A stretch of DNA of 64,000 bases from NCBI GenBank assembly GCA_963920765.1, contig OY987245.1:10184727-10248726 (forward strand). Reading direction: 5' to 3'. Below the pieces are notes generated by a model, which did no database searches, was not told the DNA's origin, and worked only from the letters and a program-made list of their open reading frames with translations. This DNA is from Ulota crispa (taxonomy: Eukaryota; Streptophyta; Bryopsida; Orthotrichales; Orthotrichaceae). Every line of letters begins with the position of its first letter. The first letter of the stretch is position 1. Both the position numbers and the translations under genes were made by a program. This document shows, piece after piece, positions 3,201-62,264 of the stretch.

Positions 3201-6200
3201 TGTATAAATGCGGTTCTGGCTTGTATTCATTACAACCAACTCGGGTATGTCTATCTTATGACTTTGCAATCCTAAAATAATTAGTTTTATCCTTAGATAT
3301 CCTCATATCTTTCTTCTGTTTGTTAGCAAGTTCTTAATAATGGATTCTTTCAGAATCTACAGTGAGTATGGAGTCTCTCTCTTGCGTTGTGACAAATAAG
3401 GCAAACCTTCTCTTCGTTAATACTCAACTTTCATCTTGCGAGAGAGGCTGATAATCAATCTTCAGGATTAAAAATATGAATTTTAGGTACGCTGATCACC
3501 TTAAAATGTACGGCACGATCTCGACTTATTGGTGGTTTTTTCGAAATCACTATTGATGAATTCCTCCAGTAACTGACAATCGTTGAGTGACAACAGGCGG
3601 GCTATCAGTTTTTTGCGGAAGGTGAAGGAGGAGGGCATTGCTGACGAAGGAGTTCTATTTGACAAGGTGAGACACTATCCCATGCAAGAGTGCAGCTTTA
3701 GCTTGCCTCCATCTTTAGAGGCCTTTTGAGATGTATTTGGGACAGTTTACATGGTCTGAACAAGCCTTGAGGCCAAGATATTTTTTCCGTATTTTAAGAA
3801 ATCCAACAATTTAATTGGTCAAGAATTGAGAGTTGTCCTTAAGGTTTGTTTTATTTTATCTGGACTGCCATATAGAAAGAATTTTAACTTTTGATGATTA
3901 AAGGAGAAATTACAAATAGGGACATGAAAACGTAAAATATTACAGATAGGGGCACAGTTTCAAAATAATTACAAATAGGGGCACAGTTTAAAAAAAAACT
4001 GTGATTTTTTGTAGATTTTTTCTGGTTTGGACATTGGTTAATTTAGACACATCACATTAAATGTTTGCTATTTCTAAAAAACTTAAAGGTCTCTCCAAAT
4101 CAAGCCTAAATAAAGAAATTATAATAAAGGGGATGACGATTTTTGGAAACTTTTAAATTTTTTGGAAGTTAGTTAACATTTAATGTGATGTATCTAAATC
4201 AACCAATATCCAAACCAAAAAAGTCTACAAAAAAGCACATTTTTTTTTGAAATTGTGCCCCTGTTTGTAATATTTTATGTTTTCATGGCCCTATATGTAA
4301 TTTCCCCATGATTAAATGATATGGATACTTAATGGCAACGCTCTTTATGAGTGATCTTTCTTTTTGACCATTTGCGGAAAGCATTATCAATCAGACAAGA
4401 TCACTGAGCCTATATAACTTTTATTTTCTTGCCCTGTCCTATGGACTCTAAATGACCTCACTTCTTTGCTCATCCTGAAGTTTTGTCTAGAGATTTGTAC
4501 AGCGGCACTTAGTTCAGTTGTCAAAGCAGCTGCTTATTGAAATTCCATCTAAGAGGTTTGTGTGTTTTGCAGCATCTGTCGTCAGGAGAGGGCATTACTG
4601 ATTATTTGTATGGCATCCCTGGAAGTGATTTGATCCTATTTGTTGGTCCTATTGTAATGTGCAGATGTTTTTGCATATTTCTTCTGGAGGACAAGATGAA
4701 AATGAAATGCGCTGGTTAGATGTAAACGATGGTTTTGTCGTGATACACGCAATGCGCGAGCTGGGCTTGCGACCGTCACGCATGTCTCTGGAGGCTCTTT
4801 TGGATGGATGTGCTGCCTTGAACGATTCTGAACAAGCTCACCGGGTTCTCCAAGAAATGGAACGAGAGGGTCTGCAATTAAATATTTTCTCAATGATCAG
4901 GTACTGTTACACATCCAAATAGCCTTTTGATTTCCATCAAATGAGCAAAACATTCCCATTGAGCAGTTATATCTTTTAATTTCTTAATCATGCTTCTTCT
5001 CAACAGTGTCACTATTTCCTCAGTGCTATTATTAACCCCTAAATGCCGAAGGCCTTTTTTGAGCTTTTGGAAATTTGATCTAAACTGAACAAGAAGTCAA
5101 CATTTTGGTAAGTTGTATCAATTTTTTAAAAATGGTAACCGTACAAATTCAAACTAGATATGTTAGACATCACATAGGAAAAGAAAACACAGTCATACCA
5201 CTTGTGGATTGAAAGATTATAACGTTTGATCAAGAGGGTGTTAAAATTGCAAAATGACTTCAAGCCTTTCAATCCTCTTTTCACATGTCAAATCTAAAAT
5301 GTTGGTCACCAAAAAAATATGAGGTTAAAGGACATAACATACATAACTCCAATCCATTTACGACTTTTCAAAATCTATTTTACAAATTTTTTAAATGAAT
5401 TTCTAGTGTGAAATTTTCTCCAAGATCTAGTGTATTTGAGGCTCATTTTCATGAGCTCTCAATACTAAAAAAGTCAAGATTGCAATGGACACCCTTGCAC
5501 AAAATCTTGAATAGAAAGTTCACAATTGATAATTTTCCAAATTGGGTTTTTGATGCTAAAATTAGACTTCAAAAAAAATAATTCTAAAATAAAAAATAGT
5601 AAAAATAGCAGCTTAGTTAGGTTTCATTGAACTTCAAAATATTGTCTACACCAAAATGTGGTGCCTTGGGCATTTAGGGGTTAACATCCTCAATAGTGAT
5701 GCTTTTTTAATACAAAGCATTGCTACTATTATTACATTGCAGACTTAGAAAGTTTGTCTTTTATACCATTTGGCACTATTATTCCCATGAATTTGTTCTA
5801 ACGAAGGGATTTACATGAGGTCTATACAGTTGTACTCTCGAATGTGTTTGTTCTAAGGGAAAACATCAAAAATGTCCCTCCATTCTTTCAAGATATCAAA
5901 TATACCCCTATGTTATTTGAAATATCAAAAATACCCTTGGCTTTGTGTAAGAATATCCATTATACCCCTAGTTATCTTTGAGAATACCATCAATACCCTT
6001 ATTTTTTTGTGCCTCTTTACTGAATTAAAAAATATATATCAAACTGACAACAAAAACTACTATGTAATCACTGCAATGGTTTTGACCACAATGGACTTAC
6101 ATACAAACACCCTATATAGAGCTTAAAGAGCTTGCTTCCAAAATTTGGCTTGCATTCAATTTACATCTTGTTTTTGTACTTTCCATTATCATCCAAGTAT

Positions 6201-6830
6201 TTACAGAAATTTGCAAAAAGAGGCACAAGAGAGAAAGATACTTTTTATAGTTCAGATAATATAAGGGTATATTTGATATTTCATAATAATTGAAGGTCTC
6301 AAAGAACCAGGGGTATAATTGATATTCCTACTCAAAGCCAGGGATATTTTTGATATTTCAAATAATGTGGGGGTAAATTTTGATATTTTGAAAAAATTGA
6401 GGGTTATTTTTGATATTTTCCCTTGTTCTAATGAGTACTGACTTCCATAGCTGGTTACACTGAAACCTTTCATTAGTGCAGATTGAAAACTTTTAAGTCA
6501 TGTCCGTGGGCTCAGCTGCATTGCATGTAGATGTATCAAGTTCCTGAATTAAAGTCAAATTTGGTGACTCGGATGTGCAGGTTGTTTCGTGCATATGTAG
6601 CAGGAGAAGACGAAGAGAAAGCTCTGGACCTGCTTGACCAAATGACCGCAGAAGACTTGAAAGACTCCGACGTTCAGTTACTGCTTTTTCAGACATTGCA
6701 ACCCCATTATGTGGCAGCTGCGGATTCGCCTATTGCTGCGGAAGCGCTAGAAACGTTGCCAAGAGTTCGGAGAAAAGTAGATGAGTTGCTGGGAGGGGAT
6801 GTGATCCCTCATACCGACATGATTTTGTGA
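255..6830 (+). CDS. PPR (P-class pentatricopeptide repeat) protein, 3' part of gene
   Basis: The gene runs in from the left edge; 512 C-terminal residues are readable. Exons by GT..AG and phase: 255-362, 647-760, 870-965, 1131-1229, 1379-1507, 2051-2155, 2372-2539, 3081-3244, 3597-3666, 4665-4900, 6581-6830 (TGA at 6828). Most exons are about one 35-residue repeat long and in phase 0. The 3244/3597 and 4900/6581 junctions split codons and rejoin in frame. Helix-turn-helix repeats are typical, for example PTVVTYNSLISACVKIGD and VKPDVNTYRLLIFAC. There is no E/DYW tail, so it is P-class. Family knowledge: such proteins bind organellar RNA and affect its stability, processing or translation; the target here is unknown and the transit peptide lies outside the window. 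So many introns is unusual, as many plant PPR genes have few or none. The 4665 acceptor is the least certain border; a competing acceptor at 4573 leads into a stop. I do not recognise the orthologue. Confidence 0.9.
3902..4307. mobile_element. hAT-like MITE (family A) in PPR intron
   Basis: Long terminal inverted repeats of roughly 130-180 bp begin GGAGAAATTACAAATAGGG on the left, and the complement ends the element on the right (TGTAATTTCCCC). It is flanked by the 8-bp direct repeat ATGATTAA (3894-3901 and 4308-4315). An 8-bp duplication fits the hAT superfamily. There is no coding capacity. It sits in the intron between exons 3666 and 4665. A half copy lies at 27198-27330. Confidence 0.85.
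5032..5684. mobile_element. TTAA-flanked MITE (family D, 650-bp class), PPR intron
   Basis: Starts TTAACCCCTAAATGCC and ends GGGCATTTAGGGGTTAA. TTAA at both borders is read as the target duplication and CCCCTAAATG as the terminal inverted repeat. It is non-coding and AT-rich. Homologous copies lie at 22105-24244 (interrupted), 33777-34434 and 38105-38746 (opposite orientation). It occupies the large last intron of the PPR gene, and its interior at about 5212 provides the empty site for an insertion seen in the 22105 copy. Confidence 0.8.
5857..6422. mobile_element. Mutator-like MITE (family B), PPR intron
   Basis: An inverted-repeat element of 566 bp with ends GGGAAAA(C/T)ATCAAAAAT and the reverse complement ending TTTTCCC. 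It is flanked by a perfect 9-bp direct repeat TTGTTCTAA (5848-5856, 6423-6431). The arms carry a striking alternation of ATACCCCTA and GATATTTC-type words. A 9-bp duplication suggests Mutator-like ancestry. A copy of almost identical length lies at 41397-41960. No ORF. Confidence 0.85.
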
Positions 6831-17700: not shown

Positions 17701-18570
17701 ATCATAACATTCTATAGCATCTGTTGACTATCCATTCTTTTCATCTGTAGTTGCACTGTGGTTGGCAAGTTGGCTAGTATCAACGCTTGCTAAACTCAAA
17801 GAAGAATGTTGGAAAATCGGAACGCCATGGATACCTTGATTTTTGCTTTATATCAGCGGTATTTGCAGCTGCTTTTTAAGCATGTTGTATTGGCTGTTTT
17901 GATGTCCAGATTTTGAAGTTTCGCAGCTTTTTTTTAAGCGTGTTGTATTGGCTGTATTTGATGTCCAGGTTTGAAGTTCCATTTGCTACGGGAGTTTTTG
18001 GTGCTGGGCTACGGAGTACTCCTCTCGGACGTGGACATAGTGTACCTCCAAAACCCGTTCAAGCATCTCCACAGGGACTGTGACGTGGAGAGCATGACGG
18101 ACGGGTTCGACAACGTGACGGCATACGGGTACGACGACGTGCAGGACGACGCGTCCATGGGATGGGCACGATACGCGCACACCATGCGCATCTGGGTGTT
18201 CAACTCGGGACTGTTCTACATCCGACCAACAGTGCCCTCCATCGAATTACTCGATCGAGTAACAGCCAAGCTGGCCAAGGAGAAGGCCTGGGACCAGGCC
18301 GTGTTCAACGAGGAGCTCTTTTATCCCTCGCACCCCGGCTACACAGGCCTGCACGCGTCCCGACGCGTCCTCGACTTCTACCAGTTCCTCAACAGCAAAG
18401 TGCTGTTCAAAATCCTCCGCAAACAGCCCAACTTCGCTGACTACAAACCTGTCACCGTTCACGTGAACTACCACCCTGACAAGTACGAGCGCATGCTTGC
18501 CATTGTCGACCACTACGTGAAGGGCAACTCCAACGCCTTGAAACGCTTTCCTGATGGCTCTGAATGGTGA
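14786..18570 (+). CDS. RRA: RRA-like extensin arabinosyltransferase (GT77)
   Basis: Exons 14786-14962, 16039-16371, 17065-17230, 17969-18570 give 425 residues, close to Arabidopsis RRA proteins. It is a type II Golgi protein: basic N-terminus, membrane anchor about residues 19-37 ([18 protein letters not shown]), coiled-coil stem about 60-112, then the GT77 domain. Matches to RRA include [35 protein letters not shown] with the nucleotide-sugar/metal DVD at 246-248, [35 protein letters not shown] and HVNYHPDK. Known role: RRA1-3 add the second, beta-1,2-linked arabinofuranose to hydroxyproline-linked arabinosides of extensins, after HPAT. Two adjacent ATGs open the frame; the first is taken. 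The last exon is strongly GC-rich compared with its introns. Introns 1 and 3 both have a duplicated 3' splice site exactly 59 nt upstream; only the downstream site keeps the frame. Confidence 0.95.
14968..15957 (+). repeat. Three tandem repeats in RRA-like intron 1
   Basis: Units of about 366 bp at about 14968-15350 and 15351-15718, plus a partial unit 15719-15957. Shared blocks: ATCATAGCATTTTGCAACAG, ATCTGTTGTCGTGATTGCTT and GAGGTTTGGTCAATTAGGGT. Units diverge by a few percent and small indels. Confidence 0.85.
15923..16042 (+). repeat. 59-bp duplication of the intron 1 3' splice site
   Basis: The block ending GCTCCTTTTTTTCAGCTGG occurs twice, with acceptors after 15979 and 16038. Use of the first adds 59 nt and reads LVGQLGYAS then stop; the second gives the in-frame exon. 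The upstream acceptor is therefore cryptic or used for non-productive splicing. Confidence 0.8.
16419..16888 (+). repeat. Tandem duplication (about 235 bp) in RRA-like intron 2
   Basis: Units 16419-16651 and 16652-16888 share ATCCAAGTTTTTCTCTTTTG, GATGACAAGATGAATCTGTG and GCATATATGAGTTTT. Divergence is roughly 10 percent. Non-coding. Confidence 0.85.
17865..17985 (+). repeat. 59-bp duplication of the intron 3 3' splice site
   Basis: The block GTTGTATTGGCTGT.TTTGATGTCCAG occurs twice, with acceptors after 17909 and 17968. Even the first codons downstream are copied (TTTGAAGTT). Only the downstream acceptor gives [10 protein letters not shown] in frame; the upstream one shifts frame to a TGA. 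Confidence 0.8.
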
Positions 18571-18676
18571 CTTTATCTGCTCAGGTTTCTTCTTCGGTGG
18601 TCGTCGTCCCGTAAAAAAGAGTTGCTGTCAGATATGAGGATTTAGACAGGACCGTGTTACTGCAATTGCAGCTCTG

Positions 18677-18913
18677 ATGTTCTAGTTCTTCACGTTTTCT
18701 GCAAGGATGTTCGAGTTCTGCGTATTTCCTGTAGAGATGTTTCAAGTTCTTCACGTTTTCTACAAGGATGTTCAAGTTCTTCATGTTTTCTGCAAGGATG
18801 TGCGAGTTCTGAACATTTCCTGCAGGGAGGTTCAAGTTCTTCACGTTTTCTGCAAGGGTGTTCGAGTTCTGCATATTTCCTGTAGGAATGTTCAAGCTCT
18901 TCACGTTTGCTGC
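18677..18913. repeat. About 30-bp minisatellite in RRA-like 3' flank
   Basis: Seven or so imperfect copies of a unit like TTCAAGTTCTTCACGTTTTC + TGCAAGGATG, alternating between CACGTTTTCTGCAAGG and GCATATTTCCTGTAGG versions. Because the period is a multiple of three, both strands read open with a 10-residue periodicity (NVKNLN... on the minus strand). It probably lies in the 3' UTR. Confidence 0.85.
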
Positions 18914-19194
18914 GTTTTTTTATTAGATAGGAAATTTAAAATATTGGTTCTGACACCGCATCTCTTCGATTACTACCTCTGTTGGAACTCTTTGTATGAT
19001 ATTGTTCGTATTGCCTTGACAAGTTTTTTTAAAATTTAAAATTTATTTATTTTTCTTTCACATGGTTGCTCTACTTTCCGTGGAACTTGGCTAGCAGGTT
19101 TGTTGTGCAACTACGGCATTGTGGTAATCTCTTCGAATTGCTGCCCTGGTGTTGTGCTCGGAGAGAACTCATGTAGTTGGAATAGCAGTTCCGT

Positions 19195-21578: not shown

Positions 21579-22113
21579 GACGGGATTTGGCACAAAAGGA
21601 CGGCACACCTATTGTCGCATTTTAGGTTTTTAATAGGATTATTAGCCTAAAAAAGAAGAATCAAATTATTAATTTTCATTTTAATATAGGATATCATGGT
21701 TGTTACTTTGAGCAAGATTTGGTTGTTGAACAACACAAGTGGACGCACAAAACCGATGGCATGGACAAGTGTGTCCATTCACTCTTGCATTATATGACAT
21801 TGGGGTTTCTGACTTCAAAAGGGAAGAATCAAATTCTAATTTTCATTTTTACTACAAGATATGGCTTTAAATCCATGTTGTGACTTCATGTTAGCAATAA
21901 TGAGTGTCACTAGCAGGTACAAAGTAAGTTTTTTTTATCATTTTTTGAAATCAATTATGAGTTGATTACATAGGACAAACATAAGCTCAATTGGGCACTT
22001 TGGGCAGTTGTGCGGTCCAATGTGACACCCATGGTTGTAACAAGGAGTGCAATAGAATAGGAAAGAAGCATCATGTTCAAAATTTTGAACCTTCCTAGAG
22101 GCCCTTAACCCCA

Positions 22114-22848
22114 GGGTGATTGCAAGAATGACCTATCTTGCTTTTTGTCCCCTTCACCTCCTCCGGGTGGTTTTTGGGTCTTATCTTTTGCGGTTTTAGT
22201 AATTTTAACCTAAAATTTCAATGTAAGGTGAACTTGAAAGTTGTTGACATTCCATGATTTTTTTGTTTTTTTTTAAATTATTTTACTATTTTTAAATAGT
22301 CCCCGATTGCATGTCTACCATGGCAATTTTGGTGGTTTTAAGTACTATTTTGGATTGAAAAAAGCAAATCTCATGCCACAAATCAAGGATGTTGTTCATT
22401 AGGAAGCATTCCATGGATATATAAATCGGTTTTACGAAACTCAAAAACTCTGCCCTGCACATTGTCTCAAAGTGGGCATCCTTTCTCCCTCCATTGGTGA
22501 AAGACAAAACCTTCTTTTGAAAAGCAGTTGCATCTGTTCAAGCTAGTGAGAGAGATAAAAATGGCCGTTTTTTGTTTTATTTTTTTGAATTTTTTTACTA
22601 CTTTCTAAAAAGCAAAAAGGAAATTGTCTTTTTATTGGTAATTTTTGTCCCTCTATTTTTGTGCATCAATTTTAGAATAAATTTTTCTAGTTCTAAGTTT
22701 TCACAAGAATGCTATTTTAAGTGCTTTACAAATTGTCCATTTTTTATTTTATTTATTTTTAAAAAATCAAAAATTCATGGTACTACCTAGTACTACCATT
22801 TTTTAAGGGTGTTTGGGACAAAATTGTCAAGTCATTCTTGCAATTCCC
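22114..22848. mobile_element. Harbinger-like MITE family E, copy 1 (nested)
   Basis: Starts GGGTGATTGCAAGAATGAC and ends GTCATTCTTGCAATTCCC. 735 bp; aligns along its length with copy 2 (GTCCCCTTCACCTCC; TACTACCTAGTACTACCA). It is inserted a few bases inside the left end of the host family D element; its duplication is obscured by a C-run. Confidence 0.75.
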
Positions 22849-23023
22849 CCCCCAAACCACCCTAGAATTTCTTGAGTTTCTAGAAAATTGATCTAATTTG
22901 AACAAAAAGCCAACATTTTCATAAGTTGTATTAATTTTTTTTGAATTGTAACTGTATAAAAACAAACTAGACATGTTAGAGATCACATTAAAAAAGAAAA
23001 CACAACAATATCTCTTTTGGATT

Positions 23024-23753
23024 GGGGTGATTGCAAGAAACACTTGTACTATTTTTTGTCCCCTTCACCTCCCGGAGGTGCTTTTTGGCTTGTAACTTTT
23101 GCGCAGCAAGTTCTTTTGAGCTAAAATTTTAGAAGGAGGCACGTGTCATAGTTACAGACCTTCCATAATTTTTGCGGTTTTTTTTAAATTATTTTACTAC
23201 TTTTGAACAGCCTCCAAATAGGTGTCTACCTTTGCCATTTTGGGGTTTTTAGTACTATTTTGGGTCCAAAATAACTTTTCTAGGGCTATAAATCAAGGAT
23301 TTTGTTTACGAAGCATGCTTACACGCATTTATAGAAGAGTTTTGCAAAATTATAAATTCCATGGCATCTACATTGTCTCAAAGTGGGCATCCTATCTCCC
23401 TCCATTGGCAAAATACAAAGAAATTCCTTAGCAAAGCAATTGTACCACGTAAATGTGATTAATGGGTTCTCAAATGGCCAATTTTTATTTTATTTTTTTG
23501 AATTATTTAACTATTTTCTAAAAAACAAGAAAGAAATTGGCTTTTTGTTGGTGATTTTGTTTTGCGCATAACTTTTAGAATAAATTTTTTCTAGATCTGA
23601 ACTTTCATGAATATGCTATTTTAAGTTCTTTACAAATTTTCCATATATATATATATATATATATAATTATTCCAAAAACTCATAGTACTACCTAGTACTA
23701 CCAATACTAAGGGTGTTTGAGACAAAACTGTGAAGTGTTTCTTGCAACTACCC
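23024..23753. mobile_element. Harbinger-like MITE family E, copy 2 (nested)
   Basis: 730 bp, starts GGGGTGATTGCAAGAAACAC and ends GTGTTTCTTGCAACTACCC. Flanked by ATT (23021-23023, 23754-23756). The intact relative at 5032-5684 has a single ATT at the same position (GTGGATTGAAAG), so it is the empty site and the 3-bp duplication is real. A 3-bp A/T duplication with G-rich termini suggests PIF/Harbinger. Confidence 0.82.
23643..23665. repeat. (AT)n microsatellite
   Basis: About 11 uninterrupted AT units within family E copy 2; the first copy lacks it at the corresponding place. Confidence 0.9.
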
Positions 23754-24286
23754 ATTGAAAGATTATAATGTTTGAACATGAGAGTATTAAAATTGCAAAA
23801 GTGATTTGAAGTCTTTCAATCTTCATTTCACATGTCAAATTTAAAAAGTTGGTCACCAAAAAATATGAGGTTAAAGGGCCTAACGTGCATAACCCCAATC
23901 AATTTATGACTTCTTAAAATTTGCTCTACATTTTTTTTTAATGAATTTCTGGTGTGATTTTTCTCAAAGATCTAGTGTATTTGAGGCTCATTCACAAGAG
24001 CCCTCAACAGTCAACACTACATAAAGTCAAGATTGCAAATGGACACCCTTGCACAAAATCTCAAATAGAAAATCATAATCAATCATTTGCAAAATCAGAT
24101 TGTTGAAACTATAGGTCTAAAACTAAACTTCAAAAAGATATTTTCAAAATACAAACTACTAAAAATCGTAATTTGGTAAGGTTTTATTTAACTTCAAAAA
24201 TTGGTCGAGGACACATTTTGTCCTCAAGGTGATTCTGGGGTTAAGATTTGACACTCTTAACATTTATTGAGCCTAGGCCGGGTACA

Positions 24287-28315: not shown

Positions 28316-29570
28316 CTACGACGCAGCACTGCCCTCAAAAGTCTGTTGGAATCCCCAGTCAGCAGGAGCTGCATTCGTAGACAGAATAACAGAGCCATCA
28401 TCAAGGGTAGCACTGAACGACAAGCTCTGTCCAGGCAAAGTACTCTCCCCACTGAGTTGCCACATCTGTCCCCAATTACGCACCATACTGAACCACTCAG
28501 TATCCGAGCCTTTTACTTGCAGCTGCTGCACGTCACCTGCACCGCCAACGTTGGTCACTAAGATGAGCAAAAACCAAGGGTTGCCGTTGATCTGAAACCG
28601 CATGCCGCCAGACTTCACGCACGCTACCCGTCGATAGCTCACTGGAATAACACCGCCCTCTTCATTAGCAAGCGAGACGAACATCGGATACGCCAAGTCG
28701 AAATGCTGCTTGGGCGTGTCACACCATCCTCCGTCACTGCCTTGAGGACAGTAGTTCGTAGCAGTAACAGTGATGGACGGGGAGCCAGATAAGCAGTATT
28801 TGGAGCCTCCGGTTTCGCATGTTAATTGGAAGCATGCACCGCAGGTAAGACCGCTGTTGAACAATGCCGCGCTCAGTGCTGCAGTTGTAGTGCCGTATCC
28901 TGTTGAGTCCAAGTTTCCGTATCCACATGCTCCACCTGCATTCACCGTACATACTCAGTCACACTGCCATGCAGATGAATCAACTGCAACGTTATGCAAA
29001 TGCTACTGCAAGCTCTTCGTATTCGATGTCTATCATAAAATACCCCTCCAGCGACGTTCTGGTAACTAGTTATGCCAATGCATGTTTTCATTGTCAACTG
29101 CAATAATTACGTCAAATAAACACTACTGCAAGCTCTTTGTATCTGACGTCTAGAGCAAGGGCATAATATACCCATCCAGTGATGTCCTGGTGACTAGCAA
29201 TGCCAATACATGGTGACAGTGTCTACGGCAATATCTACGTCAAGGAAATGCTACTGCAAGCTCTTCGTTCATGATGTCAAGAGCAAGAGCATAATATACC
29301 CTTCCAATGACGTTCTGGTGACTAGTAATGCAAGATCACGGTTTCAGTGTCTAATACAAAAATGGAATGTAGAGTACAGGATGTAATGAGAGCATGAGAG
29401 CATGGATGTGTACCTTGAGTGCCGGAAGCGTCAGTGCCGCCATAGAATGTAGCGTGTGCCTCATTACTAACCCAAGCGGAAGCAGTGAAGCCAGCCTGTG
29501 CTGAACCCACCACTGCTGCTAATGCAAGCAGTACCAGCAAAGGTCCAGACGAGTTTCTCCGGTTCGCCAT
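28316..29570 (-). CDS. EXPA: Alpha-expansin
   Basis: Two exons, 29570-29414 and 28935-28316, give 258 residues; the intron splits the Gly codon of GTQ|GGACGYGNL. A signal peptide covers about residues 1-26 (LLVLLALAAVVGSAQA). The DPBB domain has YGGTDASGTQGGACGYGNL, eight or so cysteines (56, 84, 87, 92, 100, 115, 124, 158) and the expansin HFD motif at 130-132 (WCDTPKQHFDLA). The C-terminal CBM63 has FQINGNPWFLLILVTNVGGAGDV, RNWGQMWQL and WGFQQTF. Length and architecture are normal. Known role: secreted, non-hydrolytic, pH-dependent loosening of cellulose-xyloglucan contacts during wall growth. The ATG at 29570 is followed directly by the signal peptide; an in-frame extension upstream lacks one. 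Intron of 478 bp holds three tandem repeats. Subfamily within EXPA cannot be assigned. Confidence 0.97.
28990..29375. repeat. Three tandem repeats (about 120-127 bp) in expansin intron
   Basis: The anchor CTACTGCAAGCTCTT recurs at about 29003, 29123 and 29250, each followed by a CATAATATACCC-like block and GT(T/C)CTGGT.ACTAG. Together they fill nearly the whole intron. Confidence 0.85.
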
Positions 29571-31320: not shown

Positions 31321-31599
31321 AAAAGGAAGTTTCAGCCAATGGAATGGTATACTATCAAGACGTTGTTGTATTGTCCCTTTTGTTGAAATTTCCCCTTTTA
31401 GGCTTGTGATTTGGACAAGCCTCTAATTTTTTGGGAAGCTAACTAACATTTCATGGAATGTATATAAATGTCAACATTCAAATCCAAGGGCTCGATTTAC
31501 TGCACATACATTGATCTGGGCCCCGCCTCTGTCAGAGCTCCAAATAATAATATTCCGTGGCTGCCCCTGCCCAGGCCCCAGAACATCCCATATTGAAAC

Positions 31600-31930
31600 T
31601 AAGGTAAAAGGTTCACAAACCGACCATCTAAGGGCTGAAACTAAACTTTGGGGAGGTGGAACTTCTTGAAATATTTTTTGTAAGTTTTACTTGAAAGACA
31701 AGAGGAATTGGCATCTAGTCCAAGGTTTTTCATATTTTTTGGAGCTTTATGGACTTAGTTATGAAATTTTGAAGTGGAAAGGCCATAAGGCTCTAAACCT
31801 GCCCACCTCCTCAAATGTATGTGCACTGTACATTACTAAAAGGCTATGAAATAAGAACATGTACAGGCAAAGTTCATTTGGGGAGGTGAGCCATTGTAAT
31901 GCCCTAATGGAGTTTGAGCCTCCTACCTTA
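31600..31930. mobile_element. MITE family G, copy 2 (left foldback arm)
   Basis: From TAAGGTAAAAGGTTCACAAA to CCTCCTACCTTA, 331 bp, the same length as the 21248 copy. It was present before the arm was duplicated, because its mirror image lies in the other arm. Confidence 0.7.
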
Positions 31931-33776: not shown

Positions 33777-34434
33777 TTAACCCCTAAATGCCCAAGACCT
33801 TTTTGAGCTTCTTGGAATCTCCATGAAATGAACAATCAACCAATCTTTTCATAAATTTTATCAAGTTTTTTTGCAATGGTAACCAAATAAATTTAAACTA
33901 AACATGTTAGAGATTACATGGAAAAAGAAAACACCAAAACATCACTTATAGTTTGAAAGATTGTAATGTTTGAACATGAGGGTGTGAAAATTGCAAAAGT
34001 GACTTGAAGTCTTCCAATCCTCATTTCACATGTCACATCTAAAAAGTTGGTCACCAAAAAAATATGAGGTTTCATGTCATTAATCATTACATGTCTAACT
34101 TTGATCAATTTACGGCTTCATAAATCTACTCCTATATATTTTTTAAATGTATTTCTAATGTGGATTTTTCTCCAAGCTCTAGTGTACTTGAGGCTCATTT
34201 TCAAGATCTTCCAACACTACAGAACTCAAGATTGTAGTGGACACCCTTATACAAAATCTTGAGTAGAAAAATGATCAACATTCATTTTCAAAATCAAACC
34301 TTTGATGTTGAAACAAACTTCAAAAAAAAGTTATTTTGAAAAAAGTTACTAAACAAAATGATTTGATAAGGTTTTAGTCATCTTCAAAGTTATATAAACA
34401 TCCAAATCTGGTTGCTTGGGCATTTGGGGGTCAA
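33777..34434. mobile_element. TTAA-flanked MITE (family D, 650-bp class)
   Basis: Begins TTAACCCCTAAATGCCCAAG and ends GGGCATTTGGGGGTCAA, the right TTAA having mutated to TCAA. Aligns with 5032-5684 along its whole length. Confidence 0.78.
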
Positions 34435-35510: not shown

Positions 35511-36440
35511 TTAACCCCTAAAGGACCATTGTCCGTTCGGGGGACAAATGAGATTTCACGCAGGTACCTACGGTCTCAAATTTTGTTGTGATTTTTTGAA
35601 ACTTTTTTTGAAAATAGGAAAACACATTAGCTTTTGGGGAATATAATTTTTATTCCAATTGATGCCAAGGAGCAAAAGTTATGCCCAAATAAGCAAAAAC
35701 TTGGGAGGTCCGGGCAGCAAAAAAAAATTTACAAAAACTTGATTTTTTTATGAAAAAAATTTCCCTTGTAGATTACATCTTCATTTACATTTGAAGCTTT
35801 GATTCATTCCATTTGGACTAGTTATGAGAAAGTTATGGACAATCTTGTTTTTTGGGCACCTCAAGCATCCTCTTGAAAAAATAACTTGTAAACTTCATCT
35901 TTGAATGCAAATTTAACATTTTTGCAAAAAAAACTATTGAAAAGGGTGAAGATTGTCTGCTTGAACAATTTCACCATTGAGATTATTGTGTTTCAATTCC
36001 ATTGTAAGGTTATTAACAATATAAGATTTTGTTCAATCTCGTACCTTCTTCTATTTAATTTTTTTTTTAAGAATGAAAATTGAGTATTTTTTATTTTGGT
36101 TTTTTGCCAAAGATTCTCAACTCAATTCCCCTCCATAAAAAAATCAACCTCAAAACTCCATGGTGCAAAAATTTTAAGTTGAAAAAGTTCAAATTCAAAT
36201 AATCTAATTGTGCAAGGTGCAAAAAAGCTTGTTTTTTACACTTTAAACGCAAATATCTTGCAATTTGTGTGGTCAAAGTTTTTAAGTTTTGAATGACACA
36301 TTCTTATACAAGTCTAATACAAGATCCTATGATCCGATATGCAAAAAGACCAATTTTCAAACTTTTTTACTCTTTGCCGTAGAAGTGGCAGTTTTGAGTG
36401 TCTTTTGACATAATAAAGACCATGATCCTTTAGAGGTTAA
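35511..36440. mobile_element. TTAA-flanked element (930-bp class)
   Basis: TTAACCCCTAAAGGACCATT at the left and GATCCTTTAGAGGTTAA at the right. The interior GTCCGTTCGGGGGACAAATG resembles the 55-bp mini-element at 46744. Non-coding. Confidence 0.72.
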
Positions 36441-37217: not shown

Positions 37218-38108
37218 TTAACCCCTAAAGGGCATGTACTTATAGCAAATCTGGTTTGAGTGATTTTTTAAAACTTTTGTAGAAGGTGAGGAATTTCAAG
37301 ACCTACTTGGGCATCTAATTTTTTCTTCATTCTAACATTTTATGAAGAAGTTATCAAGAATTTTCTGAAACTAGGCAAAAAAATAGCTTAAAAGGGCCTC
37401 TTCTATGTAAGTGGGTATTGACTCCAAAGAGGATCAACTCTTGTGGGCACAAGGTGTGGACGCTTGGGCAAAGGGGAGTGGATTGGAAGGTGTCTGTCTT
37501 GGAAGACTCCCAAACCTCCATTCCTTTTGCCTCTTGTAAAATTGGTGCTTCAATGTTTTGCATGGTTTGAGTATTTATTTTTTGATTACTTTTTTTCCCA
37601 AGTTGTAGTAGGATGAGGATCCTTGGTTTTTACTGTTTTGATCAATGAGCTTTGAATTTTTGAATTTTACATAAAGCCTCCAATGTTGCCGAGTGTATTT
37701 ACCATTTTCATGACCTTCCGGCATTCAAAGATTTTTTGAAGTATGTTGTACACCTCAGATTGATCTAAAAATTCTCTAGCATATACCTAATTGGGTCTTC
37801 TACATAGAGCAAATAAATATCAACTTTGTGTATAACAATTTTTTTGCTATAAGAGTAGTGAAAGGCTTCTGAATTTTTTGAGCAACAAGAAAAAAACTTT
37901 TATTGTCACTTCAAGTGTCAATATCTCACTCTGCTAAGTCTAGAATGAGCTGATTGTTTTCCCACAAGTACCTCATATAGTCTAGGGCAAGGCCTATGGT
38001 TGAATTTTCAAAAAAAGCTTGTTTTCCTACTTTTCTATCCATTCCCCCAAAAGTGACTGTTTTCAGTGATTTTCACAAAAAAAGAAGGCTTAGGCCTTTA
38101 GAGGTTAA
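37218..38108. mobile_element. TTAA-flanked element (890-940 bp class), copy 1
   Basis: TTAACCCCTAAAGGGCATGT to GGCCTTTAGAGGTTAA. It is homologous to 46802-47738 in opposite orientation (GGGCATCTAATTTTTTCTTC near one end). Its right TTAA is also the left TTAA of the next element. Confidence 0.76.
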
Positions 38109-40790: not shown

Positions 40791-41396
40791 ATTCAAGGAA
40801 ATCTTTATGTTCCTACATTTGAATTTCTACTTTTTGTGTATTTGTGACTAGGTGCCAAAGATTATGAAAGACATATTGTTTAGGATGGGAACCAATATAC
40901 TTAAGTTCTCTTTGTTTTGTTTTGTGTAAAGTTTGCATTATTGTTATGAACTCTATTGTAAGAAATTGGGAAATTCTTGGTCTATATAAGGTAGAGCCGC
41001 CCATACCCAATCATTTAAGCTCCTACTAGACAGCACATTAGAGCACAAATGCGGCGCAAATTTTTCTTTGGTGGCTTCATACAAAATATTGCAACACAAA
41101 AAAAATTAGAATTTTTCATGCAAAATTGAGTTTTATACAAATTTTGAAGTGCAAAGTGTCTGGAACCCATACCCAATCACTAGACTCTCCTAATCCCAAT
41201 CATAGCCAAAACACTTCTTGCTCACTACTTCCTACCTTCTTTTGAGACACACATCATGACTCCATTTGTCTTAATCTTTAAAAGGGAAATTTTTTGCATT
41301 CCAAGGCTTAGAAATTGGTTAGCTGGACCCAAAACACCCTAGTGGTTGGGAATAGAACCGCGGTTCAGAATGGGTGTCTCTACCAGGATTAATTTA
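40791..41396. other. Intergenic, no gene recognised
   Basis: AT-rich with no inverted repeat or credible ORF. Confidence 0.45.
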
Positions 41397-41960
41397 GGGA
41401 AAATATCAAAATTACCCCTCAAGTCTTTCAAAATATCAAATATACCCCTGTATTATTTGAAATATAAAAAATACCCCTAGCTTTGTGTAGTAATACCAAT
41501 TATACCCCTAGTTCTTTGGGACCCTCAATAATTATGAAACATCAAATATACCCTTGTATTATTTGAATTATAAATATATTCCTAACTCTATTGTATGTAT
41601 TTTTGCAAATTTTTGTTAATACTTGGATGAATATAGAAAGTACAAAAACTAGATGTAAGTTGAAAGCATGCCAAATCTTGGAAGTAAGCTCTTTAAGCTC
41701 TAAATAGGGTGTTTGCATGTAAGTCTATTGTGGTCAAAACCATTGCAATGATTACATAGTAATTTTTGTTATCATTTTGATATTTAAAATATTACAATAA
41801 AGAGGCACAAAAAACTAGGGGTATTAATGATATTCTCAAAGATAAGTAGGGCTATAATTGATATTACTACACAGAGTCAGGGGTATTTTTGAAATTTCAA
41901 ATAATATAGGGGTATATTTGAAATTTTGAGAGTATTGAGGGATATGTTTGATATTTTCCC
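41397..41960. mobile_element. Mutator-like MITE family B, copy 2
   Basis: 564 bp, GGGAAAATATCAAAATTACC to GATATTTTCCC, against 566 bp for the copy at 5857. Flanks ATTAATTTA and TTTAATTTA differ only in the first base, consistent with an aged 9-bp duplication. Confidence 0.82.
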
Positions 41961-42593
41961 TTTAATTTATTGGCAAATTTTTGCCAAAACCTTACCTCAA
42001 AAGGCCACTGGCTACACATACATTAAAAAATTTGGGTGAAATGTTGGATGGAATTGCCATATCCCTCCTGAACCAAGAACCCAGCTCGCCAAATTTTGGA
42101 TGAAAGTAGCTTATATTAGTAGCTGTTTGGATGACCTTTTGCCTATCATTCAATATTTCCATTTCTAGCCAAGTTTTCCTTACCTGCGTGCATTCTGGGG
42201 TGCAGGTCGCTCTACCCTGGCAAAAACAAAAAATAAAACCCTGCTCTCTACCTTATGGTGAAAAGCTTTGCCATGCTCAGTTCCTCCCAATAATGCAATA
42301 AAAATCAACTTTTACAACCCATACCAGCAACTTTATGACATTACTGAATTCTACCCAGTGAAACGTTCAAATTAGGAAGTAACTTGCCTGTGCAAAAAGT
42401 GGTGCTGGAGGCAAAAAGAAACTGGAAGAGTGTTGAAAAATCACCGGTCCACTCCGGTGAAACGTAGAAAGTTATTGGGAGATTTCAAAACTCCCACTAA
42501 AACTCCTAGATCTCTCCCTCAATCAGTTTTAAAATTAAGTCCTTGGCCTTTGTATTAAATGTTTCCTTATGAATTCTCGGGAGGTTCCATGTT
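41961..42593. other. Intergenic, no gene recognised
   Basis: No coding frame. GGATGGAATTGCCATATCCC at 42049 resembles 33519 (GGATGAAATTGTCAAATCCC), indicating shared repeat DNA. Confidence 0.4.
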
Positions 42594-45054: not shown

Positions 45055-46013
45055 TTGACCCCTAAAGCCCGAAGGGTGTTACATAGAAAAATAAGACCAA
45101 ATCTGCCATTTTTTTTTATTATTTACATAAAATTCAAACTAAAAACTTTTTTCTGAGTTTCAACCATCCAGAAGTGTAATATACAAGTAAGGCAATGTGT
45201 GAAAAAAAGTTCAGCCCATTTGACCGCATAGATTGTAAGATTATAATGTTTGAAGTGAGAAAAACACAATTTTTTCATTCTTGCAAGACAAGGTTGGCAA
45301 ACTTTGAGCCCTCCTAAAGTAAATTTTTTTGCTCTACACAAAAAACCTTTATTTGACCATTCATAAATGTATGATGTTAGGTTCACTCATGAAAATTTTT
45401 AGGAGTAAATATAGAATCTAGCTTATTCTAGATCACCCTGCAATGCAAGGAGGTTCAATGAACTAGCAATACACTAGTCATTTTTTCATGATTTCTTGTG
45501 CAATGAAGAAGTCTTTTATTTGAAATCCAAATGGTGAACTTTGGAGGCAAACATTTGGAGTATGTGAAAAAAAACAATAAATTTAAAAATATGGATTGTT
45601 AAATAATAGAGCCTAAAGTTAGAAGAAACTATTTTTTCTTGAAACTATCCAAACATAGTTAACAAAGTTTTACTCCTCTTAAGATGTGATTTGCAAGCTC
45701 AACTTTTTTTTTTCTTGACAATTTTATACTATGTTTTGTTAGTCACATACATGCCAAGTTTCAAAAGTTGATGAGAGTTTTAGCATAAGATTCTCCAAAT
45801 ATGCTCAAATTGCCCAAGGTGCCCAAATTCTTTTGGGCAGCATAACTTTGTACTCAAGCATCTCATTGGAGTCTTTTTTTTAAACACAAAAGCTTTCATT
45901 TTGTGCACCTTACCTCCAAATTTCAAAATTATTCGCCAAATATTGACTTCATAGGAACCTATCCAAACTTTCAACCAACTATTGAACAAACTTTTGTGGT
46001 TTAGGGTTTAAAC
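45055..46013. mobile_element. Probable decayed TTAA-type element
   Basis: The left border TTGACCCCTAAAGCCCGAAG is clearly of the family D type. The right border (GGTTTAGGGTTTAA) is only approximate, so the extent is tentative. Non-coding. Confidence 0.45.
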
Positions 46014-46743
46014 AAAGCTAATACTGAATCCAAGGAAGTTTATTAAATTTCCTTTAATTGATCATATGATTCATATAAGTTTTGAAAACCTAGACAAAGA
46101 TGATAAAACATCCTTAACACAAAACATTGAACTCTTCATCCAACTTTGGAATAACCAAGAGGCTAGAAGAGGCGCTTCATACTATGTCCCATATCCCATT
46201 GAAATTGTAGAATTTGATTGGTATGAAGTCAAAAGTTGGGATTTGGCACTTCACACTTTGTTCCAAGACCCACATTAAGGTCATTGCATTTTGTTTATAT
46301 AGCAACACTTTTTGGAAATTTTGGCTCCAAAGAAGGTGGGACTTCACTCAAAATTTGGGTTGACCATTTTGCTAAACCCAATTGTAAGCCCAAGTCCCAC
46401 CAATAATTTTTGCATGAAATATTTATGACTTTCTTTAATACTTATTTGTGTTCTCCTTCAAATGTTGATATGGATTTTCTTTGTTAGATTAGTTATTTTT
46501 CATCTAGTATTTATTCAAAAATGATCATAAAAACACGGTCCATCAAGAAAAACAAAATATGACTTTAGTAACCCAAATTGCGACAAAATTCACAAACACA
46601 ATGTTAGGTCTCATGGTACCCTTCTCACAATTTTCATAAGAGCAACATGCAATGTCAACTTATGCAACTTTTGAAAATAATATTAAAATGTGTGAACACT
46701 TGCCACATCCTGTAGAGTGCAGCCATGGTGATGAGCATGGTGT
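46014..46743. other. Intergenic, no gene recognised
   Basis: An open frame of 70 codons at 46066 has no recognisable feature. The text GGACTTGGGTTGAAACTTGA near 56210 and GGCTTACAATTGGGTTTAGC (complement of 46372-46391) hint at a shared diverged repeat. Confidence 0.35.
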
Positions 46744-46798
46744 TGCCCCTAAAAGACCAACTATCCCCTTGGGGGACAATTGATTCTATAGGGGTTAA
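46744..46798. mobile_element. Minimal TTAA-type element (about 55 bp)
   Basis: Reads TTGCCCCTAAAAGACCAAC at the left and TATAGGGGTTAA at the right, with CCCCTTGGGGGACAA between. It appears to be little more than two termini of the 35511-type element and lies 3 bp from the next TTAA. Confidence 0.5.
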
Positions 46799-46801: not shown

Positions 46802-47738
46802 TTAACCCCTAAAGGACCAAGCCTTTTTTTTTGCCAAAATCACCAAAAATTGCCACTTCTAGGAGGTTTAGTAAAAAGGGATTTTATGTTTTGTTTTTGG
46901 GAAATCTAACCGTAGGATCTTGCCCCAAACTAGAAGAGGTACTTGTGGGAAAAAAACTAGCTCATCCCAGATGGAGAGGAGTGAGATATTTACATTTAAA
47001 GTGAAAAAAAAGTTTTTTTTCATGTAGCCCAAAAATTTCAGAAGCCTCTGACCATTTTGATAACAAAAAATTACTTTACCCAAAGTTGCTTCTTTTTTTC
47101 CACGTATGAGATCAAGTTAGGTATGTGTGGGAGAATTTTCAAATCATTCACAACTATACAACACATGGGAAAAATTAGTAAATAAAAAGAGGTAGAGAAT
47201 GAGTCAAAACACTAAATTGTTAAGAATTTAATTAGTAAAATGAAAAATGTAAATCCCAACGGTCATAATGTTGTGATAATCAATCTACTTCCATTCACTA
47301 ATTTTTTTTCCAAAATATTGAAGTTTGAGTAAACTAAAGGTTTTCAGAGTTTATTTTAGAGTAGAGAATCCATAACTGCCCGCAAACAAAAACTCCTCAT
47401 AAATTTCATCTCAATGATTGAAATTTGATGATTAAAAGCTTCTCACGTATAAAAATATCTAAAGAACCAATTTCAAGTTTTAATATTTTTTAAATGTAAA
47501 TTTTAAAGAAGTTTTTGGGTTGCCTAGATGGGCAATCCTCCCCAAATTTTCATAAATTCATGCACAACTTCTTCATCAAATGTTGAATGGAATGAAAAAA
47601 AAAATTAGATGCCCACATAGATCTTTGAATTCCCCACCTTCAATAAAATTTTCAAAAAATCACACAAAGTAGTTTGGCCATAGGTACATGCCCAAAGTCT
47701 AACCTGTCCCCCAAAGGGATTGGTCCTTTAGGGGTTAA
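46802..47738. mobile_element. TTAA-flanked element (890-940 bp class), copy 2
   Basis: TTAACCCCTAAAGGACCAAG to GGTCCTTTAGGGGTTAA. Reverse complement aligns with 37218-38108. Non-coding. Confidence 0.78.
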
Positions 47739-51663: not shown

Positions 51664-51933
51664 TTAACCCTTAAGTGTCCACTGGGTGATTGCGGCTTGC
51701 CCATTCTGCACAAGTTACTAAGACCTAACATAATGCTTTTGAATTTTCTCACAATTTGGGTTACCTAAAAATATGAGTATATTTGATGAGATTGTTTTTT
51801 TGCCTTCAGATGAACCATGTGTTTACAATCACTTTTGAAAAAAAATCACATGAAAAACGACTTCTTTCTGTAATTCAAAATGTTTTTTCGGGGCCCAAAG
51901 GAAGAAACGTTTTCATGGGCAGTTAGGGGTTTA
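51664..51933. mobile_element. Short TTAA-type element
   Basis: TTAACCCTTAAGTGTCCACT to GCAGTTAGGGGTTTA, about 270 bp; the right target site has become TTTA. Non-coding. Confidence 0.55.
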
Positions 51934-57445: not shown

Positions 57446-57694
57446 TTAACCCCTGAACGCCCAGAGTTGAAACAAAAGAAGCCTGACTTATATGCAATCA
57501 AACTGCCCCTGTGGAATGAAAAATACGATCCACAAGATCCGACCATATGGATTGTTAGTGGAAAGAGTCTCCATCATGCTGGACTTAATTGGAAGTCATT
57601 TCACCGGACGTGCAATGAGATTATAATGGTCAAAATCAAGTTGACCCAGCTTTTTGAGCGACAATATATTATCGCCCGGGCGCTCAAGGGTTAA
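57446..57694. mobile_element. Short TTAA-type element (249 bp)
   Basis: TTAACCCCTGAACGCCCAGA to CGGGCGCTCAAGGGTTAA. TTAA is intact on both sides. Non-coding. Confidence 0.7.
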
Positions 57695-57779
57695 GGAAAA
57701 AAAAGCTGAGCTTTTCCACCGTGGCTTCAAACACGTGTGTGCAATAGTACAAGCCTTGTCCAAGCCTATTCCAAGCCCC

Positions 57780-58419
57780 TTAACCCTTAAGCGCCCCAGC
57801 AACAAGATCTTGTCGTTGGGGCCCACAACTTTATCCCATTTTTTCTCATGATTTGTACGGTGAAAACAATCATGGCTAGTCCCCATCATCACAGAAGGTA
57901 GTCCTTTTTCAAATCCTACGGTCACTTTTTCTGGCCGGGGCTAGATGGCATGCTGCTTTGGTTGGGGCCTGCGCCTGACACCCTGCCCAGGCCCATGCCC
58001 CTGCTCAAACTTTTTCTCGCACCCCTGAACTCCAACCTTGCTTGTTCAGTTTTCAAAACTTGTAATTTGAGCCCCTTCACTTGATGTTGTGATCCCTTGA
58101 ACTTGGTTTGTAATTGGTTCTTTCACTGATGTGCTCATGAACTAGTTACTAACCAAGTTCAAGGGATCACAACAACAAGTGCAGGGGCTCAAATTACAAG
58201 TTTTGAAAACTGAACAAGCAAGGCTAGAGTTCAGGGGTGCGAGAAAAAGTTCGGGCATGGGCATGGGCCTGGGCAGGGTGTCAGGTGCGGGCCCCAACCA
58301 AAGCGACATGCCATCTAGCCCCGGCCACCATTTCTGGATGTAATTTTCCAAGCTGTGGTGGCCATTAAACCCCCATTTTCTCCTAAATCTTAAAATAACT
58401 CTGGCCGCTCACGGGTTAA
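57780..58419. mobile_element. TTAA-type element containing a nested palindrome
   Basis: TTAACCCTTAAGCGCCCCAG to GGCCGCTCACGGGTTAA; 394 bp of its 640 bp are the inserted palindrome at 57933. Confidence 0.7.
57933..58326. mobile_element. Near-perfect palindromic element, GC-rich
   Basis: Arms of about 170 bp start GGCCGGGGCTAGATGGCATG and end in its near-exact complement, around a spacer of about 45 bp. Flanks ACTTTTTCT and ACCATTTCT agree at 7 of 9 positions, suggesting a 9-bp duplication. It is much more GC-rich than its surroundings. Confidence 0.8.
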
Positions 58420-60531: not shown

Positions 60532-60844
60532 CATTACAAGGGATTTGGACCTCCAAAGAGGCCCCTTCCCCCAAATCTATGGGAGTTTTGGAAACACCTT
60601 CCACATGGGCAGTGTGCTGCAGGCCAGGCTAGCACTATGTCAACCACATCAACCTGTATTATTTTATTATTTTATTTTTATTTTTTTAAAAATCAAAAAA
60701 AAAATTCAGAAATTTTCTTGTTTTTTTCTAAGATTTTTTTTTTTTTCATTTTTTTTTTAATTAAGTTTTTTGACAACCAGCAGGGGCCACAACATCAGGA
60801 ACAAAAAACTCACAACCCCTTTGGAGGTCCAAATCCCTTGTAAT
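60532..60844. mobile_element. MITE family L, copy 2 (nested)
   Basis: CATTACAAGGGATTTGGACC to GGTCCAAATCCCTTGTAATG, perfect terminal complement of at least 20 bp. T-rich tracts in the middle. Confidence 0.75.
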
Positions 60845-60888
60845 GACAATATAACACCCTAGGATAAATTTTAAATTTCTACCATAGA

Positions 60889-61146
60889 AAAGCTGAATTT
60901 GAGAATTTGGAATTTAGATTTGGACTTAGAGACCATGATTTAATCTAGAACCATAAAAAGGTTGCAATTCAACAACTCCCAATGAAAAATTTTAATTGGG
61001 GAGAAAAACATTTTTTTACTTTTGTTTGTAAAATAAGATAAACTTTTTCATTGGGTGTTGTTGAATTGCAACCTTTTTATGGTTCTAGATTAAATCATGG
61101 TCTCTAAGTCCAAATCTAAATTCCAAATTCTCAAATTCAGCTTTTT
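60889..61146. mobile_element. Near-perfect inner palindrome, family K-like
   Basis: Arms of about 110 bp (GCTGAATTTGAGAATTTGGA versus TCCAAATTCTCAAATTCAGC) around a short spacer with TTTTACTTTTGTTTG. Similar to 43680-43945. Confidence 0.78.
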
Positions 61147-61353
61147 GATCGTAGAAATCCAAAATTTACCCCGGGTGTGGTACAGTAGTTCAAAGGGTGT
61201 GGTACACATATCAATTCCCATTTACTTTTGCTCTCAAGATGAAATTTTATTCCTTTTTTCATCTCAAAGATCATCATGCTACGTAATGAGATAATTTTTT
61301 GTTCATAACGCAGGGAATTCCAAAATACAAACATACTAGAGAATCCTTGAGCA

Positions 61354-62264
61354 TTAACCCCTAAAGGCCCAAGGAACCCATTTTGGGCTTTATGAGAACT
61401 TAGGCAGGCTCTATTGACTTCACAATTTGGAAATTTTTCATGAAACTTTTAGGATGGATGCTACTCATCATAATCTACATGTGAAGCTTTATTTCATGTT
61501 GTTTGGATAAGTATTGCAAAAGCTAGAAGGTTTTTTCAATTTCAATGTCAAACCAGGCAGCAAAAATTGTATTCTAAATTTTTAAAGATTTTTTTTAAAG
61601 GATTGTATAGATTGATACCTACTCAAAAAAATCAAATCACTCAACTCCAAATAATGAGGTAAGAGTTACAAGGAGTGTTCTTTTGCAGGCAATGAAGGTA
61701 GGAAGAAGGTAGAAAAAGCACATAAAGTTATCTTTTACTCTCAATTTTGAAAATTTTCAAATGAAAGTTACTAATTGTTTGTTAGAGCATTCTCACCATT
61801 GGAATTAAAAAATTTCAAATTCTTCCAAAACTTATCAGCATATTAGTTATATCTTTCATTCATCAACACCTTTCACTTTACAATTTTTGTAAAAATGAAT
61901 CCAAATTTCTTTTTGGTTAAATATTTTTATATATGCTTTCAACCCATTTTCCAACATATTGCAAAAATTGCACAAGAAATACAACACATGTGTTTTTTTT
62001 TTCTAAAAAGTTTGAAAATCAAAACTTCACCTTTTGGAAGGATTATAAAAACTTACATTTTGAAGTTTTGGCACATTGATCTTGCAATTGGTGGGGATAT
62101 TCATTTTGAAATTTTGGGACAATGTACTTGTGCAAGTCAACCAAAAGATCCTATGGTTGGATTTGTTACGAAATAAGTTTCAATGAAGATTCTGACCCTG
62201 GATTGGGGACTAGTATTTTGAAGCAGTTTTGGGCCCCTAAACACAAAAGAATTTTAGGGGTTAA
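61354..62264. mobile_element. TTAA-flanked MITE (family D', 920-bp class), copy 2
   Basis: TTAACCCCTAAAGGCCCAAG to TTTTAGGGGTTAA, 911 bp against 921 bp in copy 1 at 24287. The two align end to end with roughly 10 percent difference. Confidence 0.82.

What the first reader, a model, noticed from the sequence alone, without database searches (positions are those of the whole stretch)
5032..62264. Abundant TTAA-specific (piggyBac-type) MITE system in a plant genome
At least ten elements in the window open with TTAACCC(C/T) and close with its complement: 5032, 22105, 24287, 33777, 35511, 37218, 38105, 46802, 57446, 57780, 61354, plus weaker ones at 45055, 46744 and 51664. The base before the left TTAA and after the right TTAA varies, while TTAA itself is nearly invariant (one TCAA, one TTTA and one TTGA/TTGC among decayed copies). 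That is what a TTAA target duplication predicts, and a CCCT-type terminus also fits known piggyBac ends. Class II TTAA elements are well known in animals, fungi and some protists but are not commonly reported as a major component of land-plant genomes.
Basis: partly seen in the sequence, partly recalled or inferred. Interest (0 to 1): 0.85.

Follow-up and report, generated by a model that had tools for sequence, protein, structure and literature searches.

The report
piggyBac transposon relics crowd moss genome
Short mobile DNA pieces of the piggyBac kind, best known from animals, occur in the thousands in this moss genome, together with decayed full-size copies that still show the enzyme gene which probably moved them.

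Summary
Confirmed. About a dozen elements in the window run from TTAA-CCC(C/T)T to its complement; TTAACCCY occurs 21 times against 5.3 expected. The host is a moss, judged by its expansin. In its 275-Mb assembly TTAACCCCTAAAKGCCC occurs 5,596 times, its reversed control 0 times. TTAA stands at both ends in 53 of 59 fetched copies, and the bases outside are random. The best-matching related sequences without the insertion show a single TTAA or a one-base variant. The assembly has 120 piggyBac transposase matches. Decayed 5-8 kb elements carry such a transposase between similar ends. One, PB4, has ends like family A; two 0.9-kb copies look like PB4 without its middle. PB3 matches family C at both ends. 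The catalytic D-D-D residues are recognisable. So these are piggyBac-superfamily, MITE-like elements: a known kind, unusual for host and abundance. Corrections: the host is a moss; several elements exceed usual MITE size; the 22105 element is interrupted by two copies of another transposon; one listed start is off by one base.

The parts
5032..5684 (+). Element A1 (family A, 653 bp), TTAA at both ends
   Evidence: as a genome query 34 of 41 rows run exactly from 1 to 653
22105..24244 (+). Element A2 (family A), interrupted by two copies of transposon X
   Evidence: A sequence resumes at 22850-23024 and 23754-24244; X copies at about 22114-22849 and 23025-23753
33777..34434 (+). Element A3 (family A, 658 bp), right TTAA decayed to TCAA
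38105..38746 (-). Element A4 (family A, 642 bp), sharing one TTAA with element C3
24287..25207 (+). Element B1 (family B, 921 bp)
   Evidence: as a genome query 37 of 40 rows run exactly from 1 to 921, all 91% identical or more
61354..62264 (+). Element B2 (family B, 911 bp), 88% identical to B1
46802..47738 (+). Element C1 (family C, 937 bp), inverted ends alike over 22 bp with two mismatches
   Evidence: terminal 469 bp 59% identical to one end of piggyBac element PB3
35511..36440 (+). Element C2 (family C, 930 bp); first 150 bp and last 220 bp match the left and right ends of piggyBac element PB3
37218..38108 (+). Element C3 (family C, 891 bp)
45055..46011 (+). Element F (957 bp), left TTAA decayed to TTGA; a 77% identical copy is nested in PB3
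46743..46798 (-). 56-bp remnant with C-like ends, left TTAA decayed to TTGC
51664..51933 (+). Weak 270-bp element, right end TTTA
57446..58419 (+). D-type ends (such as CCCTTAAGCGCCCC); one 974-bp element, or two adjacent ones (57446-57694, 57780-58419)
   Evidence: the ends resemble those of piggyBac element PB2

Best explanation
The repeats are non-autonomous members (long MITEs) of the piggyBac superfamily in a moss. A DDD transposase of the DDE_Tnp_1_7 family, made by autonomous elements of about 5-8 kb with similar TTAA-CCC(C/T)T ends, would cut them out and insert them at TTAA, duplicating that site. Shown here: the ends, the single TTAA (or one-base variant) at the best paralogous empty sites, transposase genes inside elements with matching ends, copies that look like one such element without its middle, and the catalytic residues. 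Inferred: that this transposase moved the window's families (supported for A by shared ends, for C by homology at both ends, for B and F by ends and kinship only), and that excision and insertion follow the known piggyBac chemistry.
For: TTAACCCY enrichment. Most genome copies run exactly from end to end: 37 of 40 rows for B, 34 of 41 for A. 53 of 59 loci have TTAA at both ends, with no preference in the ten bases outside. The seven best paralogous empty-site alignments (79% identity or more) carry one 4-base unit: TTAA in four, TTGA in two, TCAA in one. 120 PF13843 matches in the assembly, best E 1.3e-73. Of the eight transposase loci examined (of 120 matches), PB1, PB2, PB5, PB6 and PB8 lie between inverted TTAA-C-rich ends 5.0-6.0 kb apart. 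PB4 (5,746 bp) has ends identical over 15 bases after TTAA, with the transposase inside; its left and right ends match best the two different ends of family A (82-89% over 37-49 bp; 74-81% over 42-54 bp). PB3 (8,033 bp, with a nested F copy) matches family C at both ends. Queries running across PB4's borders match elsewhere up to the border: 35 of 39 non-self rows start within 3 bases of it, 39 of 39 end within 3 bases of it. Copies in L034 and L028 consist of the first ~290 bp and last ~585 bp of PB4. Catalytic motifs. PDB relatives are the piggyBac and piggyBat transposases, E 3e-13 to 4e-20.
Against: No intact autonomous element was shown: the eight best transposase matches carry 1-6 in-frame stops; 10 of 120 matches have none, but mostly cover only part of the domain. 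Families A and PB4 share only about 40-50 terminal bp directly, and the crosswise pairing of their ends also aligns, if less well (74-76%). L034/L028 could formally be read the other way round, PB4 being such a copy with 4.9 kb inserted. Judged by itself, the inverted-end match is weak for PB8 (13 of 100 random sequences as good) and modest for PB1 (3) and PB2 (2). PB7 showed no convincing ends. Of the 14 weaker empty-site alignments (62-77% identity) only 3 read TTAA. On sequence alone a 2-bp TA duplication inside a TTAA target gives the same filled and empty sites. Orthologous empty sites were not available.
Confidence: 0.95

Rival explanations
1. Another TTAA-duplicating superfamily (Kolobok or Sola, named from recall) moves these elements, and the piggyBac genes are bystanders.
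For: TTAA duplication alone is not unique to piggyBac (recalled). The genome was not searched for the other transposases.
Against: DDE_Tnp_1_7 transposases lie inside elements with similar ends, and MITE-like copies look like one of them without its middle.
Confidence: 0.03
2. Tc1/mariner-type (TA duplication) or PIF/Harbinger-type (TWA duplication) MITEs, with TTAA merely the preferred sequence around the target (duplication lengths recalled; also in PMC10004981, passage).
For: A TA duplication inside a TTAA target is formally indistinguishable on sequence. These are among the common plant MITE groups.
Against: TTAA is held at both ends in 53 of 59 loci. The transposase linked to the ends is piggyBac. 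A 3-bp duplication does not fit symmetric TTAA...TTAA ends.
Confidence: 0.02
3. The TTAACCCCTAAA similarity is chance, or telomere-like CCCTAAA sequence.
For: CCCTAAA is the usual plant telomere unit (recalled) and overlaps the end sequence.
Against: 5,596 exact 17-base ends against 0 in the reversed control; full-length copies with defined borders; single copies of the motif at element ends.
Confidence: 0.005

Closest known systems
piggyBac superfamily (DDE_Tnp_1_7, PF13843; solved relatives piggyBac 6X67/6X68 and piggyBat 9C0F)
   Same: TTAA target and duplication, C-rich inverted ends, DDE_Tnp_1_7 transposase with the three catalytic aspartates
   Different: Moss host. In a tree of 21 proteins the ten moss copies are spread over several branches of one supported group that otherwise holds four unnamed environmental proteins. 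The only organism-named relative in the two transposase searches is from the sea slug Elysia crispata, outside that group.
piggyBac-type MITEs of insects and other animals (recalled; an insect MITE paper, PMC9033116, seen in the listing only)
   Same: Short non-coding elements with TTAA and CCCT-type ends (recalled)
   Different: Here mostly 0.64-0.96 kb, in a land plant
Plant MITEs of the Tc1/Mariner, PIF/Harbinger, Mutator, hAT and CACTA superfamilies (PMC12550479, passages)
   Same: High-copy non-autonomous DNA elements
   Different: Different target duplication and different transposase (recalled)

Membership tests
piggyBac superfamily | Insertion at TTAA with duplication of TTAA | tested here: met
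   53 of 59 loci with TTAA at both ends; one TTAA or one-base variant in all 7 paralogous empty-site alignments of 79% identity or more; weaker ones mixed. A TA duplication inside TTAA is not formally excluded by sequence.
piggyBac superfamily | Terminal inverted repeats of the CCYT type (consensus recalled) | tested here: inconclusive
   CCCT at 51664, 57780 and both ends of PB5 and PB6; CCCC, one base off, in families A, B and C and PB4
piggyBac superfamily | DDE_Tnp_1_7 transposase encoded between those ends | tested here: met
   seven of eight loci examined (PB1-PB6, PB8), with the strength of the end match varying; PB7 not resolved
piggyBac superfamily | Catalytic D-D-D triad | tested here: met
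   all three aspartates in L001, L003, L004, L005 and L006 of eight loci; L002 has lost two, L007 and L008 one each
piggyBac superfamily | C-terminal cysteine-rich domain | tested here: inconclusive
   Cysteine-rich tail visible by eye in the PB4 reading frame; no Pfam zinc-domain match among five fragments at E 0.01
piggyBac superfamily | Seamless excision through TTAA hairpins (recalled) | not testable with these tools
   needs a biochemical assay
MITE | Short, high copy number, no transposase | tested here: met
   A to F 0.64-0.96 kb; 1,278 (B) and 5,340 (A) loose first-look candidates, 40 scored each; no PF13843 match listed inside the window. Larger than the typical 50-800 bp for B, C and F.
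MITE | Deletion derivative of, or end-sharing with, an autonomous element | tested here: met
   L034 and L028 copies look like PB4 without its middle; family C matches both ends of PB3; family A shares about 40-50 bp per end with PB4; B and F not resolved

The most novel reading that the evidence does not exclude
Mosses hold an old, diverse and hitherto unrecognised clade of piggyBac transposons that produced thousands of MITE-like copies and a considerable share of the DNA, partly by inserting into the TTAA ends of earlier copies; some open transposase copies may have become host genes.
Probability: 0.4. Interest if true: 0.65.

Novelty: new member of a known kind. Interest (0 to 1): 0.52.

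Why it matters
A 2025 survey of MITEs in 207 plant genomes names five superfamilies plus Micron (PMC12550479, passages) and does not contain the word piggyBac (0 occurrences in the listing); TTAA elements are likely to be missed or misfiled by such a scheme. A land plant rich in piggyBac copies lets one ask how the superfamily reached plants and whether moss genes arose from its transposases. piggyBac is a widely used genome-engineering tool, so natural plant relatives could also be of practical use.

Tried and rejected
The plain inverted-end score over all TTAA pairs is a weak test by itself: for PB1, PB2, PB5, PB6 and PB8, 3, 2, 0, 0 and 13 of 100 random (first-order Markov) sequences scored as high. 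PB3, PB4 and PB7 failed it in that call (6, 100 and 100 of 100), where the stretch was too short (PB3, PB4) or wrongly joined (PB4, PB7). PB4 and PB7 were first joined with their middle part reversed, on the wrong assumption that minus-strand loci are turned round. They were rejoined correctly. The PB4 end positions did not change; one search's matches to its ends lie outside the reversed part.

I first took 22105-24244 for a doubtful pair with poor inverted ends; it is a family A element broken by two X copies. TTAACCCT at 11449(-) found only a poor partner and was dropped. Autonomous partners of B and F were not found. The 14 control genomes gave 0 matches, but they are not named in the answer and I draw nothing from that.

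Literature searches without a hit on piggyBac in mosses or on TTAA MITEs as a large part of a land-plant genome: (ten searches of an open-access library that lacks most subscription papers; judged from listings). Searches were malformed and not answered. Papers seen as passages only: PMC6890710, PMC10619864 (the word there is 'piggybacking', not the transposon), PMC10004981, PMC10794571, PMC12550479, PMC7466625, PMC9247546.

The first two attempts to hand in this report were returned: one for a check against the calls, one because fields were missing. The check changed: in-frame stops of the eight best copies (1-6, not 1-8), the start of the 46743 remnant, the strength of the A-PB4 end match, the weaker empty-site alignments, the CCYT test (now inconclusive) and several counts.
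Full report
Observation. Of the two degraded starts, 45055 (TTGA) is exact and the TTGC start lies at 46743 rather than 46744. The motif occurs 21 times against 5.3 expected, and 0 of 100 shuffles reached 21. The six best inverted-end pairs in the window are six of these elements. Self-comparison sorts most of them into families: A (5032, 22105, 33777, 38105; about 650 bp), B (24287, 61354; about 915 bp, 88% alike), C (35511, 37218, 46802; about 890-940 bp, about 61-63% alike and about 59% alike to B) and F (45055). The pair starting at 22105 is a family A element broken by two copies of another transposon, X. The elements make up 14.8% of the window.

Host. Exon-sized reading frames include an expansin (28316-28954). 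Its best organism-named relatives, among the 120 of 1,126 hits listed, are mosses: Ceratodon purpureus 78% and Physcomitrium patens 74%; an unnamed protein is 87% identical. The window lies in a 275-Mb assembly of 157 contigs.

Genome-wide. A family A query gave 5,340 loose first-look candidates and a family B query 1,278; 40 were scored in each case. Apart from the queries themselves and one fragment, the rows are 90-93% identical; 34 of 41 rows (A) and 37 of 40 (B) run exactly from end to end. TTAACCCCTAAATGCCCAAGG occurs exactly 1,054 + 1,064 times and TTAACCCCTAAAKGCCC 2,800 + 2,796 times; the reversed patterns occur 0 times.

Target site. Of 60 fetched loci (two of them the window's own A1 and B1), 59 were read at both ends; 53 have TTAA on both sides, 56 on the left and 55 on the right, and the ten bases outside show no strong preference. 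53 of the 60 loci and 10 window elements were turned into joined flanks and compared with everything held. 21 alignments span the junction with enough sequence on both sides. Seven of them, from four insertions (L015, L034, L051, L055), are 79% identical or better. All seven have four bases where the filled site has two TTAA: four read TTAA, two TTGA, one TCAA; six of the seven have no gap within ten bases of it, and one has a 2-base gap four bases away. The remaining 14 are weaker (62-77% identity): three read TTAA, the others ATAA, TTGA, ACAT and other 4-mers, and one has a gap there. Nine of 112 intact TTAA sides abut another element-like end (0.4 expected from base frequencies), and A4 and C3 share one TTAA in the window. 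So the elements also seem to hit the TTAA ends of earlier copies.

Transposase. PF13843 (piggyBac DDE_Tnp_1_7) matches the assembly 120 times, best E 1.3e-73; 110 of the 120 matches have in-frame stops, and the eight best have 1-6. Of these eight, PB1, PB2, PB5, PB6 and PB8 lie between inverted TTAA-C-rich ends 5,027, 6,010, 5,586, 5,102 and 5,288 bp apart; against random sequences the match of the ends is good for PB5 and PB6, modest for PB1 and PB2 and weak for PB8. With more flank, PB4 spans 5,746 bp (C5:10867266-10873011, minus strand; ends identical over 15 bases after TTAA) and PB3 spans 8,033 bp including a nested F copy. PB7 was not resolved. The three aspartates of the VDE, DN and GVDxxDQ motifs are all present in five of eight loci. 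The only PDB matches are the piggyBat and piggyBac transposases. In a tree of 21 proteins the ten moss copies fall in one supported group with four unnamed environmental proteins, spread over several branches (four label changes needed, three forced by well-supported branches); the Elysia protein lies outside.

Link between small and large elements. PB4's left end matches one end of family A at 82-89% over 37-49 bp and its right end the other end at 74-81% over 42-54 bp; the crosswise pairing also aligns, at 74-76%. Queries running across PB4's borders match other genome places up to the border: at the left 35 of 39 non-self rows start within 3 bases of it, two more match the flank plus TTAA only, and two reach 9 and 17 bases across (40 of 443 candidates scored); at the right 39 of 39 end within 3 bases of it, 87-92% identical (40 of 1,550 scored). 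Copies in L034 and L028 consist of PB4's first ~290 bp and last ~585 bp, 59-75% identical, without the 4.9-kb middle; the left 100 bp of the L034 copy also match family A at 69%. Family C element C2 matches PB3's left end over 150 bp and its right end over 220 bp (63% and 62%). This is the usual relation between an autonomous DNA transposon and its MITEs.

How it works (inferred). The transposase would bind the C-rich ends, cut the element out, and join it to a new TTAA, which is thereby present on both sides. The small elements lack a transposase and would depend on that of the large copies. No intact large copy was shown, so present activity is unknown.

What is known. piggyBac is an established superfamily. 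In print I saw a trace in a fern (PMC6890710, 1,230 copies, 0.00% of the genome) and a mention of PiggyBac among angiosperm MITE superfamilies (PMC10004981). A 207-genome plant survey that includes four bryophytes has no such class (PMC12550479). My ten searches found no paper on piggyBac in a moss; the library is incomplete.

Verdict. It is a new member of a known kind, surprising mainly for its host and its abundance.

Noticed in passing
window 22114-22849 and 23025-23753; also L075 in the PB4 region (87-88% identical): Transposon X, about 735 bp, ends GGGTGATTGCAAGAA / GGGTAGTTGCAAGAA; X2 sits in A2 with a 4-bp duplication ATTG, judged against the other A copies. Superfamily not determined.
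   Followed up: partly
window 31489-33320: Very large inverted repeat, arms about 600 bp and 98% alike around a core of about 637 bp.
   Followed up: no
window 57932-58327, 60835-61197, 5855-6424 and 41396-41962: Long hairpins (foldback repeats); the last two are copies of each other at 85%.
   Followed up: no
G000 C1:1180709-1181995 (L086) and C8:19570986-19572215 (L087): piggyBac transposase matches in two pieces without in-frame stops in the matched parts; possible intron-bearing or domesticated copies.
   Followed up: no
G000 C2:36765124 / 36779670; C7:18203169 / 18223004; C10:676128 / 785346: Pairs of transposase copies with equal or nearly equal scores on opposite strands, suggesting inverted segmental duplications or assembly duplication.
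   Followed up: no
window 17962-18570: Exon of a nucleotide-diphospho-sugar transferase (PF03407, E 3e-34).
   Followed up: no
window 28980-29363 and 18663-18922: Short tandem arrays with 128-bp and 30-bp spacing.
   Followed up: no
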